A DNA stretch of 26,847 nt, from positions 1 through 26,847 of the IMG/VR virus record IMGVR_UViG_3300013137_002261. The stretch is one strand, 5' to 3'. Below are positions 24,010-26,847 of the stretch, piece by piece (positions within the stretch are counted from its first letter, which is position 1; each line of letters starts with the position of its first letter). Source of the DNA: a virus. The notes beneath the pieces are model-generated. The model was not told the origin of the DNA, did no database searches, and saw nothing but the letters and a program-made list of their open reading frames with translations. A program made the translations under genes and the position numbers.

Positions 24010-24465
24010 TTAGGGGCGAGTCACGCTATACACCAAAGTGGCACCAATGGCAAGCCCCAAAGCACCAAAAACGTAAGGGCGCCACGCTGGCACGGACGAT
24101 GCAGACAACTCCGCGAGATCTAGGCGAAGTTGGTCAATAGTTCGGTCTTTAACTTCGATTACACCTGTGTAATAGGTGCGCATAATAGCTTTATCAGCAT
24201 CACACTTACTACGGTCAATAGCAGCAACACTGTCTTTAGACTTAAGCTTAACTAGACAAGCCGCCTCACACTCCTGTGCAGCTGATACTAACCGCATGGA
24301 GGCATCTCCTGTAAGACAGTATCGTGTAACAGTAAAAACTACAGACTTACGGGCTGGAACCGTTATTCGTGGCAACTCACTTTCTTGTGCGCTTACGGGG
24401 CTCGCGGTTAATAACAGCATCAAGAGCGCTATTGACTGCCTCAGGATCTTTTGAAAGAGCTTCAT
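24010..24465 (-). CDS. Secreted, C-terminally anchored protein (spanin-like layout)
   Basis: A 151-residue protein with an N-terminal signal peptide (hydrophobic SIALLMLLLTASPVSA, then QES, a likely signal peptidase I site), a Cys-containing exported domain, a short coiled-coil-like segment (EVKDRTIDQLRLDLAEL) and a C-terminal membrane span (YVFGALGLAIGATLVYSV). Its first 30 codons are read inside the 3' end of the coiled-coil gene at 24377-24742 in another frame. That resembles overlapping Rz/Rz1 spanin genes, but there is no lipobox cysteine, so a spanin call is only a possibility. The second repeat copy has a stop at the fifth codon of this frame, so only this copy is functional. Confidence 0.7.
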   Translation of the reverse strand: MKLFQKILRQSIALLMLLLTASPVSAQESELPRITVPARKSVVFTVTRYCLTGDASMRLVSAAQECEAACLVKLKSKDSVAAIDRSKCDADKAIMRTYYTGVIEVKDRTIDQLRLDLAELSASSVPAWRPYVFGALGLAIGATLVYSVTRP

Positions 24466-24774
24466 TTTTATCGCTCACTTCAGCAACAGCCGCAGCTATC
24501 CTTTCTGGTTCCGTTTCGAGGATTGCTGCTTTATCTGCATTGCTTTTCGTTTGAGAGTTAGCAAGTGCTGCATCTCGCTCGGACTCAAATTTAGATATTT
24601 CTTCTCTTTCTTCTTTTCCCCTAATAAAAAGCTTCTTAAGAATTGCCAAAGCTGGATTAGCCTTTGATAGAGCAAGATATCCTGCTACTATGACAAGGAT
24701 ACCCAGAAGCCACTTCCAATACTTATAAATAAATTTAAACATTATTTACCTTTTACAGCTTTATACCAAAGATT
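24367..24774. repeat. 408-bp tandem repeat, copy 1 (intact)
   Basis: First copy of a direct tandem duplication with a period of exactly 408 bases (for example CTA at 24685 and 25093). It carries the full coiled-coil gene and the last codons of a copy of the upstream membrane gene (NLWYKAVKGK). Against copy 2 I count 26 base differences in 24367-24649, none in 24650-24759, and one at 24760. Confidence 0.9.
24377..24742 (-). CDS. Membrane-anchored coiled-coil protein, intact repeat copy
   Basis: A 121-residue protein with one N-terminal membrane span (KWLLGILVIVAGYLAL) followed by a charged, Ala/Glu-rich helix (KEEREEISKFESERDAA and onward) and a basic tail (REPRKRTRK). The layout (N-terminal anchor, long helix outside) is that of a phage i-spanin such as Rz, or of a membrane-anchored accessory protein. 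AAAGG six bases before the ATG supports the start. A disrupted tandem copy lies upstream, about 87% identical in the shared protein part. The next gene starts inside its 3' end. Confidence 0.75.
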   Translation of the reverse strand: MFKFIYKYWKWLLGILVIVAGYLALSKANPALAILKKLFIRGKEEREEISKFESERDAALANSQTKSNADKAAILETEPERIAAAVAEVSDKNEALSKDPEAVNSALDAVINREPRKRTRK

Positions 24775-25075
24775 TCGTGGCAACTCACTTTCTTGTGCGC
24801 TTACGGGGCACACGATTAATAACAGCATCAAGAGCACTATTGACTGCCTCAGGATCCTTTAAAAGAGCTTCATTTTTATCACTCACCTCAGCAATAGCCA
24901 CAGCTATCCTTTCTGGCTCCGTTTCGATGATCGCTGCTTTATCTGCATTACTTTTCGCTTGAGAGTCAGCAAGTTCTGTATCTCGCTCGGACTCAAGTTT
25001 AAATATTTCTTCTCTTTCTTCTTTTCCTCTAATAAAGATCTTTTTAAGAACTGCCAGAGCTGGATTAGCCTTTGA

Positions 25076-25250
25076 TAGAGCAAGATATCCTGCTATCTTT
25101 CTAGTGCGCACAAGTGTGCACTGGTAGTTCCTGCTTCGTCCAAGCCGGTTTCATTAGAGCCGAAGCTCTAATCAGAGCCTTCTTGTCCACAGGCGTAACT
25201 TCCCCCGTAGCCCGAGGTACTGGTTTCAGGTTGATTGCCGCGTTTACGTC
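25076..25250 (-). ncRNA. Predicted TnpB guide (omega/re) RNA
   Basis: TnpB proteins use an RNA made from the 3' end of tnpB through the element end, with the flanking DNA as the guide. Here the tnpB stop (25101) is only five bases before the element boundary, so the scaffold must lie within the tnpB coding end. The near-palindrome AGTGCACACTTGTGCGCACT (25102-25121 region) could form part of it. The guide would be the minus strand just left of 25095, beginning CAGGATATCTTGC. The extent given is approximate and inferred from the family. Confidence 0.35.
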
Positions 25251-26297
25251 CCGGTCGTGGACAACCCCACACGTAGGGCACGCCCACTCGCGCACACTTA
25301 ACGGCAGCTTCTTCAAGACATGCCCACAATCAGAACAGGTCTTGGACGACGGGAACCAGCGGTCGTGAACCACGATTTCGGCCCCGTACATTGGCGCTTT
25401 ATAGGTCAACTGCCAACGCAGTTGACCCCACGCTTCATCTACAATCCGCCGCGCCAACTTGTGGTTTCGGACCATGTTCTTCACGCACAAATCCTCGATC
25501 CCGACAGCTTGGTTCTCGCTGACAAGTCTCGTGGTTAGCTTATGCACATAGTCCGACCGGATGTTGGCGATGCGGTTGTGAAGTCGCGCCAGCTTCATAA
25601 CCGACTTCCGTCGGTTGTTACTTCCTTTCTGCTTTCTACTGTGACAACGAGACAGCCGTCGCAGCCGCTTGAGATTATTACCCAGAGCTTTCGGCCCTTG
25701 AACAACCTCGCCAGTAGACAGTGTGGCCGTAGCCTTGATTCCGAGATCCACACCGACGACACCATCGGCGATCCTCTGCTTGTGAACTTCGCCTATCTCT
25801 ACCTGAACGCTGATGTGCCATTGGTCGGCTGTGCGGGAAACCGTTGCCCCGAGTACCTTACCCTCGAAGCGCAATTCCTCCCACATCTTGACCCAACCGA
25901 TCTTCGGTAGGTGTACTCGCTTCCCGTCGAATCGGGCCTTGTCGCAAGCGACGTAAAAGCTGTCCCTCGACTTCCCCTTCTTCTTGAACCGGGGATAGCC
26001 CGGCTTCTCGCCGTTCTTCACGCGGCGAAAGAAATGGTTGAACGCTGCTTGAAGGTCGTCAAACGGTCGCGCATGAGCGTCCCGGTGGATGTCGCGCATC
26101 CAAGGCCACCGCTCATACTTCTCAGTGTTGAACTGCTTCTTGAGACTACGACCAGTCGGCTTCTCGCCCGCCTTGTAGGCCGCCTTCCAGCGCACTAGCG
26201 CCTCGTTGTAGACGAACCGAGCCGTCCCGCACGCCCGTAGGAAGTAGTCCTCCTGCTGAGCATCGGGCACGAGTCGGATTCGGTGGGCGAGGATCAC
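25101..26297 (-). CDS. tnpB: TnpB RNA-guided nuclease, catalytic residues intact
   Basis: A 398-residue TnpB (IS200/IS605 and IS607 OrfB). It has the N-terminal helix-turn-helix-like OrfB region, RuvC I GVDLGIKAT (D184), RuvC II GIEDL (E278), a zinc finger CSDCG (321-325) and CPTCG (340-344), and RuvC III HDRDVNAAINL (D350). All three catalytic acids are present, so the nuclease should be active. TnpB cuts DNA matching its guide RNA beside a short flanking motif and helps the element persist. The start is a GTG overlapping the tnpA-like stop (GTGA). Its high GC content differs sharply from the phage genes and marks recent transfer. Confidence 0.92.
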   Translation of the reverse strand: MILAHRIRLVPDAQQEDYFLRACGTARFVYNEALVRWKAAYKAGEKPTGRSLKKQFNTEKYERWPWMRDIHRDAHARPFDDLQAAFNHFFRRVKNGEKPGYPRFKKKGKSRDSFYVACDKARFDGKRVHLPKIGWVKMWEELRFEGKVLGATVSRTADQWHISVQVEIGEVHKQRIADGVVGVDLGIKATATLSTGEVVQGPKALGNNLKRLRRLSRCHSRKQKGSNNRRKSVMKLARLHNRIANIRSDYVHKLTTRLVSENQAVGIEDLCVKNMVRNHKLARRIVDEAWGQLRWQLTYKAPMYGAEIVVHDRWFPSSKTCSDCGHVLKKLPLSVREWACPTCGVVHDRDVNAAINLKPVPRATGEVTPVDKKALIRASALMKPAWTKQELPVHTCAH

Positions 26298-26494
26298 GGC
26301 TTCAACGCTTCCTTCAACGACTTTTTGTAGTTCCGAAGTCCGTAGAGGTGTTCATCAAGCACGGCCTGTGCGTATGCGCGTCGCCCGGACGGCAGTCGTT
26401 CCGCCTGCAACGTGCCTTCACGATCCCAGCGCTGGAGCGTGCTCCTGCTTCGCCCTAAGTACTCCGCTGCTTTGCCGACAGAAAACATCTTCAT
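26294..26494 (-). CDS. tnpA: Truncated IS607 TnpA: MerR-like HTH only
   Basis: A 66-residue protein matching the N-terminal DNA-binding domain of IS607-type transposases: MFSVGKAAEYLGRSRSTLQR, then WDREGTLQAERLPSGRRAY. The serine recombinase domain that should follow (about 130 or more residues, with its YARVSS-type active site) is missing. There is no room for it in any frame, because tnpB starts at the stop. This indicates an internal deletion or a reduced form. The piece could still bind the element ends or its promoter and act as a repressor, which is inference. The ATG has no clear Shine-Dalgarno site. Confidence 0.8.
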   Translation of the reverse strand: MKMFSVGKAAEYLGRSRSTLQRWDREGTLQAERLPSGRRAYAQAVLDEHLYGLRNYKKSLKEALKP

Positions 26495-26502
26495 GGTGCT
26501 TA

Positions 26503-26531
26503 TGTTTAGCGTATTCTGGGTACGTTGTCAA
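26503..26531 (-). promoter_or_regulatory. Promoter of the tnpA-tnpB unit
   Basis: Minus-strand TTGACA (26526-26531), a 17-bp spacer and TAAACA (26503-26508), close to the sigma70 consensus. It lies inside the element, so it travels with tnpB, and it is only eight bases from the tnpA start. Confidence 0.65.
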
Positions 26532-26605
26532 TAGCTAGATTCACGCTCCTACTATGACAAGGATACCCAGAAGCCACTTCCAATACTTATAAATAAATTT
26601 AAACA

Positions 26606-26847
26606 TTATTTACCTTTTACAGCCTTATACCAAAGATTATGCACCAGTACTGAAGCTCCACCCAAAAGTATACCATAGATCCATTTTGATGATAAAGGTG
26701 CTTCTAAGTAGGAGGTCCCAGGCAACGGAATATACACAAGGAATATGCCATACAAATACGGAAGTAGTGGCACAAAGCGCCTACCTTTACCCTTAAAAAA
26801 AGCCGGTAAAAGCTTTTGCACTAAGTGTACAAGGAAGAAAATTACAA
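26606..26847 (-). CDS. Multi-span membrane protein, holin-like, 5' part outside
   Basis: The frame is open to the window edge, so the gene starts beyond 26847; a GTG at 26821 is an internal alternative. The visible part has about three hydrophobic spans: VIFFLVHLVQKLLPAFF, then VPLLPYLYGIFLVYIPL, then WIYGILLGGASVLVHNLWY, with basic residues between them (FKGKGRR). Small multi-span proteins next to coiled-coil and exported proteins are typical of phage lysis cassettes, but no endolysin is visible and the holin call rests on topology only. The stop overlaps the start of the split repeat gene (TAATG). Its last 10 codons were duplicated with the 408-bp repeat. Confidence 0.6.
   Translation of the reverse strand, partial: VIFFLVHLVQKLLPAFFKGKGRRFVPLLPYLYGIFLVYIPLPGTSYLEAPLSSKWIYGILLGGASVLVHNLWYKAVKGK

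What the first reader, a model, noticed from the sequence alone, without database searches (positions are those of the whole stretch)
24650..25121. TnpB guide would perfectly match the intact repeat copy in the same genome
The element sits in the second of two tandem copies, with the tnpB end at its left edge. By the established TnpB rule, the guide is copied from DNA just outside that edge. That flank is identical to copy 1 for 38 bases (24650-24687). In copy 1 the site is uninterrupted, so it is equivalent to the empty target that TnpB cuts. The phage thus carries an apparent self-target 408 bp from the element. Cutting there could drive copying of the element into copy 1 or deletion between repeats, unless the flanking motif, TnpB expression or phage proteins prevent it. 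A TnpB with an adjacent duplicated self-target inside a phage would be a natural test of TnpB-driven homing and gene conversion.
Basis: partly seen in the sequence, partly recalled or inferred. Interest (0 to 1): 0.85.

Follow-up and report, generated by a model that had tools for sequence, protein, structure and literature searches.

The report
Phage TnpB element with spared near-target
A phage carries an RNA-guided cutting gene (TnpB) inside one of two neighbouring copies of a gene; its guide matches the intact copy perfectly, but one changed DNA letter beside that site makes it look like the element's own end, so the intact copy is probably not cut.

Summary
The identity is real: 38 bp beside the element's tnpB end (25058-25095) equal copy 1 (24650-24687). 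The element is an IS607-derived remnant of 1456 bp: intact TnpB, a conserved RAGATH-18-like guide-RNA scaffold, and a TnpA cut down in frame to its DNA-binding part. The guide would match copy 1 over 32 nt. Yet copy 1 is probably not a working self-target. The 6 bases next to the element (TAGCAG) are also the element's own right end; GCAG is invariant in 19 relatives. Targets instead carry (A)GGAG: near-identical copies in Bacillota begin exactly there, 12 of 21 relatives sit in Shine-Dalgarno position before an ORF, AGGAG is a published TAM of related TnpBs, and this element's left flank has it. Copy 1 has AGCAG: one G-to-C change at TAM position -3, the only difference from the left flank over the nearest 78 nt. 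To TnpB, copy 1 is the same as the element's own right junction, which must be spared. Guide match confirmed; self-cutting not supported. The most novel reading left open is that copy 1 is a TnpB-resistant scar of abortive homing or element loss. The TAM and cleavage are untested for this protein.

The parts
24366..24773 (-). Copy 1 of the 408-bp tandem duplication, uninterrupted
24377..24742 (-). Intact 121-aa orphan gene of copy 1; no Pfam, PHROG or phage match
24682..24686 (-). Copy 1 sequence at the TAM position: AGCAG, predicted non-TAM (C at -3, plus-strand base 24684)
24662..24681 (-). 20 nt of copy 1 identical to the predicted guide (identity runs 32 nt, 24650-24681)
24774..25089 (-). 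Copy 2, part downstream of the element (3' part of the interrupted gene)
25070..25089 (-). Predicted guide GATATCTTGCTCTATCAAAG, copied from DNA just outside the right end
   Evidence: right end invariant, then variable sequence in relatives:
25092..26547 (-). IS607-derived element, 1456 bp (equivalently 25090-26545; shared core AG)
   Evidence: copy 1 as empty site plus family ends:
25090..25095 (-). Right end TAGCAG, the end of the reRNA scaffold; GCAG invariant in 19 aligned relatives
25090..25220 (-). RAGATH-18-like reRNA (omega RNA) scaffold overlapping the 3' end of tnpB; weak Rfam match at 25128-25193
25101..26297 (-). tnpB, 398 aa, RuvC residues D184/E268/D350 and zinc cysteines conserved
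26294..26494 (-). mini-TnpA, 66 aa: MerR-type DNA-binding domain joined in frame to the C-terminal tail of TnpA; serine recombinase domain missing
26546..26550 (-). Left flank AGGAG, predicted TAM of the original target in copy 2
26548..26638 (-). Copy 2, part upstream of the element (5' part of the interrupted gene and upstream region)

Best explanation
A transposase-defective IS607-derived element inserted into copy 2 of a tandemly duplicated phage gene at an AGGAG site. Its TnpB and guide RNA look intact and would cut element-free versions of that AGGAG site, for example in co-infecting sibling phages, which favours keeping or copying the element. Copy 1 is spared despite a perfect 32-nt guide match because its motif is AGCAG. 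AGCAG is also the sequence at the element's own right junction, where C instead of G at TAM position -3 keeps TnpB from cutting its own locus. Shown here: the ends, the guide match, the motifs and the conserved scaffold. Inferred: expression, cleavage activity, and that this protein does not cut AGCAG sites.
For: Copy 1 and the right junction are identical over TAGCAG plus 32 nt, and copy 1 differs from the left flank only by C/G at -3 over 78 nt. GCAG at the right end is invariant in 19 aligned relatives and followed by variable sequence. 12 of 21 relatives have an ATG-led ORF 4-10 nt after GCAG against 0.87 expected, 0 of 3000 random sets, as if the original targets were GGAG Shine-Dalgarno sites. 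Bacillota RAGATH-18 elements compared as near-identical copies at unrelated sites begin exactly with AGGAG (identity outside 11/40 and 7/40, inside 38/40 and 37/40) and end with AGTAGCAG. RAGATH-18 IS607 TnpBs have experimental TAMs AGGAG or GAGGG, and any single change in AGGAG abolished cutting by ISFba1 TnpB (PMC11061315). The other Bacillota right-end class reads AACGG, which against TAM GAGGG again has C for G at -3. Scaffold helices covary: 10 of 13 pairs have changes on both sides, reached by 0 of 500 shuffles. TnpB catalytic residues are conserved.
Against: The TAM of this exact TnpB has not been measured. It is only a distant relative of the chain taken to be ISFba1 TnpB (8iaz, E 2.3e-50), and its residues aligned to the published TAM contacts are not the same, so its specificity could differ. 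Several phage left ends were located with the help of GGAG itself; only the Bacillota left ends and the start-codon test are free of that circularity. The Rfam RAGATH-18 match is below its gathering score (22.2 against 44.9 bits). That the two right-end classes pair with the two published TAMs is my inference. Expression in the phage is unknown.
Confidence: 0.75

Rival explanations
1. One reading: copy 1 is a functional self-target; TnpB cuts it and drives copying of the element into copy 1 or deletion between the repeats.
For: Perfect guide match over 32 nt; intact nuclease residues and scaffold.
Against: Copy 1 lacks AGGAG and equals the element's own right junction over 6+32 nt, so a TnpB that cut copy 1 should also cut its own element. 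The published relative lost all activity with any single TAM change.
Confidence: 0.08
2. Copy 1 is a TnpB-resistant scar: its site was once AGGAG and was cut or occupied, and abortive copying from the element's right end, or loss of the element by deletion between the TAG repeats at its two ends, left TAGCAG. This is an origin story compatible with the best explanation, not an alternative to the sparing of copy 1.
For: The differing base equals the right-end base, and deletion between the TAG repeats would give exactly the copy 1 sequence CATAG-TAGCAG-GATATC. Around the site the copies differ at 2 of 123 bases (24684 and 24760) against 26 of 284 elsewhere (hypergeometric P 0.003), as local gene conversion would leave.
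Against: A point change or an older paralogue difference gives the same base. Constraint on the N-terminal segment could explain the low divergence; synonymous codons alone give only P 0.02. No sibling phage was found to show the ancestral state.
Confidence: 0.12
3. The element is dead or silent in the phage, so the guide match has no consequence of any kind.
For: The transposase catalytic domain is lost; the element is a GC-rich insert in a low-GC phage; there is no evidence of expression.
Against: tnpB is open and conserved at catalytic and zinc positions and the scaffold is intact. Loss of TnpA with TnpB kept is common in this group: 16 of 21 show no TnpA match.
Confidence: 0.3

Closest known systems
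RAGATH-18-associated IS607 TnpB (ISFba1 and relatives, PMC11061315)
   Same: TnpB with a RAGATH-18-type guide RNA; AGGAG is the published TAM and this element's left flank; Bacillota elements of this kind share the TAGCAG-type right end
   Different: Scaffold overlaps the tnpB coding end here, while that paper describes it as separate; Rfam score below cut-off; phage location; TnpA reduced to its DNA-binding part
ISXfa1 IS607 TnpB (PMC10711439)
   Same: Serine-recombinase family with a dinucleotide core; flanking bases form part of the scaffold
   Different: GG core and TAM GGG there; AG core and GCAG right end here
TnpB gene drive of insertion sequences in plasmids (PMC11870625)
   Same: Guide copied from the insertion site directs cutting of element-free copies
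   Different: IS200/IS605 in plasmids and tested there; IS607-derived in a phage and only inferred here

Membership tests
IS607 family element | TnpA serine recombinase with N-terminal MerR-like DNA-binding domain | tested here: not met
   Only the DNA-binding domain and the C-terminal tail remain (66 aa), so it is called IS607-derived, not an autonomous IS607
IS607 family element | tnpA-tnpB overlap and a dinucleotide core without long target duplication | tested here: met
   Overlap at 26294-26297; shared core AG by comparison with copy 1 and family ends
TnpB RNA-guided nuclease | RuvC D-E-D triad and zinc ribbon | tested here: met
   D184, E268, D350 and cysteines 321, 324, 340, 343 conserved; Pfam OrfB_IS605 and Cas12f1-like TNB above cut-off
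TnpB RNA-guided nuclease | reRNA scaffold at the 3' end of tnpB ending at the right end | tested here: met
   Conserved, covarying scaffold ending in GCAG
TnpB RNA-guided nuclease | Guide RNA made and target cut | not testable with these tools
   Needs small-RNA data and a cleavage assay
RAGATH-18 RNA (RF03064) | Rfam gathering score | tested here: not met
   22.2 against 44.9 bits, at the expected place and orientation
   Guide match met over 32 nt; AGGAG absent, AGCAG present. The TAM itself is inferred

The most novel reading that the evidence does not exclude
Copy 1 is a natural TnpB-resistant allele made by the element itself: abortive homing or element loss wrote the right end's non-TAM base into the target, so the same C-for-G at -3 that protects the element's own junction now protects the second gene copy.
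Probability: 0.12. Interest if true: 0.75.

Novelty: new member of a known kind. Interest (0 to 1): 0.5.

Why it matters
One locus shows how an RNA-guided transposon nuclease could tell its own end from a target by one base at TAM position -3, and it offers a natural matched pair (AGGAG flank, AGCAG copy, same guide match) in one genome to test this. If the scar reading is right, it would be a natural case of a target escaping a transposon-encoded drive. As a self-targeting TnpB it would not be a good test system, because the target is probably not recognised.

Tried and rejected
Phage relatives through the duplicated gene and the terminase: none close, so no empty sibling site. Nucleotide relatives of the element: only distant. 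An empty site for relative L215: the search found only itself. The alternative that GAG belongs to the left end and the target is GCAG, which would need no base change in copy 1: rejected because Bacillota copies begin to match exactly at AGGAG and because reconstructed targets are Shine-Dalgarno sites only with GGAG. Assembly chimera of two strains: judged unlikely because the joint at 24773/24774 shares only a few bases with either parent context (sequence read directly); reads are not available. GCAG near the start of tnpB in L094: not counted as a left end, because the sequence after it reads as the start of tnpB.

Full report
Observation. The window is a 26,847-bp linear virus record. A 408-bp unit is duplicated in tandem; copy 1 (24366-24773) is uninterrupted and copy 2 is split by a GC-rich element. 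The only good matches to the 20-nt guide in the window are the element's own right junction and copy 1; the next has 5 mismatches.

What the element is. On the minus strand it reads mini-TnpA (26494-26294), TnpB (26297-25101), right end. TnpB has three TnpB-type domains above Pfam cut-offs, and D184, E268, D350 and zinc cysteines are conserved among its relatives. The 66-aa protein aligns to the N-terminal DNA-binding part of full IS607 TnpA and to its C-terminal tail, with the recombinase domain missing in frame; the Geoalkalibacter plasmid relative has a different internal deletion. Of 21 elements with the same right end, this one included, two keep a full TnpA, three keep a part and 16 show no TnpA match. 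The element is IS607-derived and cannot move by its own transposase.

Guide RNA. Rfam gives a weak RAGATH-18 match at the expected place (22.2 bits, cut-off 44.9). The strand folds better than shuffles (z -2.39, 3 of 200 as good) into a closing stem, a UUCG hairpin and a terminal hairpin. In 19 relatives the closing stem and terminal hairpin show changes on both sides in 10 of 13 pairs, which no shuffle reaches, and slid controls fall well below. The alignment is of divergent sequence that is partly coding, so this supports the RNA without proving it.

Ends and motif. All 19 aligned relatives end in GCAG, followed by variable DNA. In 12 of 21 an ATG-led ORF begins 4-10 nt after GCAG, against 0.87 expected: these elements sit in ribosome-binding sites, so the original target most likely had GGAG where the right end now has GCAG. 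Independent support comes from Bacillota RAGATH-18 elements: near-identical copies at unrelated sites start to match exactly at AGGAG and end at AGTAGCAG. The TnpB of one of them has 8iaz as its best solved match (E 1.8e-106). I take 8iaz to be ISFba1 TnpB because its N58/N59, K77, K80 and N118/N119 fit the published TAM contacts with an offset of 3; that is inference. Published TAMs of this group are AGGAG (18 of 22 strains) and GAGGG (4 of 22), and each single change in AGGAG abolished cutting by ISFba1 (PMC11061315). The second Bacillota right-end class ends in AACGG. In both classes the right end differs from the TAM by C for G at -3, if the classes pair with the TAMs as their sequences suggest. 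ISXfa1, with TAM GGG and a GG core (PMC10711439), is compatible.

Consequence for copy 1. Left flank: CATAGTAGGAG. Right junction: GATAGCAG then GATATCTTGC. Copy 1: CATAGTAGCAG then GATATCTTGC. Copy 1 equals the right junction over 6+32 nt and lacks AGGAG. Every element of this kind carries its own guide sequence beside its right end and must not be cut there; the same reasoning spares copy 1. So the guide match is real, the self-target is not supported, and the TAM assay is the decisive test.

How copy 1 came to differ. Over 24650-24772 the copies differ at 24684 (the TAM base) and 24760, 2 of 123, against 26 of 284 in the rest of the unit (P 0.003). One search gave 1 of 123 because it compared 24684 with the right end instead of the left flank. 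Constraint on the N-terminus, an older paralogue difference, a point change, element loss between the TAG repeats, and abortive homing are all possible. I give the last two together 0.12.

Limits. No sibling phage, no reads, no expression data and no assay. Phage left ends were located partly by GGAG. The residues of this TnpB that align to the ISFba1 TAM contacts are not the same, so its specificity might differ.

Noticed in passing
L268-L314 (Bacillota genomes): Two right-end classes of RAGATH-18 IS607 elements, ending AGCAG (or GGCAG) and AACGG; each would differ from the published TAMs AGGAG and GAGGG by C for G at -3, a possible general self/non-self rule.
   Followed up: partly
L041, L046, L055, L056, L062, L067, L069, L210, L212, L215, L227, L235: These elements end 4-10 nt before an ATG-led ORF, that is in Shine-Dalgarno position.
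   Followed up: yes
window 26294-26494; L011 2151-2504: TnpA reduced by different in-frame internal deletions that keep the DNA-binding domain and the overlap with tnpB.
   Followed up: partly
L046, L044: The first 7-8 bases inside the putative left end repeat the right flank, more than the AG core; unexplained.
   Followed up: no
L048/L118, L070/L101: Two TnpB genes of this kind in one phage contig.
   Followed up: no
window TnpB residue 118: Cysteine where close relatives have asparagine in the FYVANDK motif, near the region aligned to TAM contacts.
   Followed up: no
window 24010-24465 and 24377-24742: Two overlapping small orphan genes with apparent membrane segments, an arrangement reminiscent of lysis genes; no database match.
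   Followed up: no
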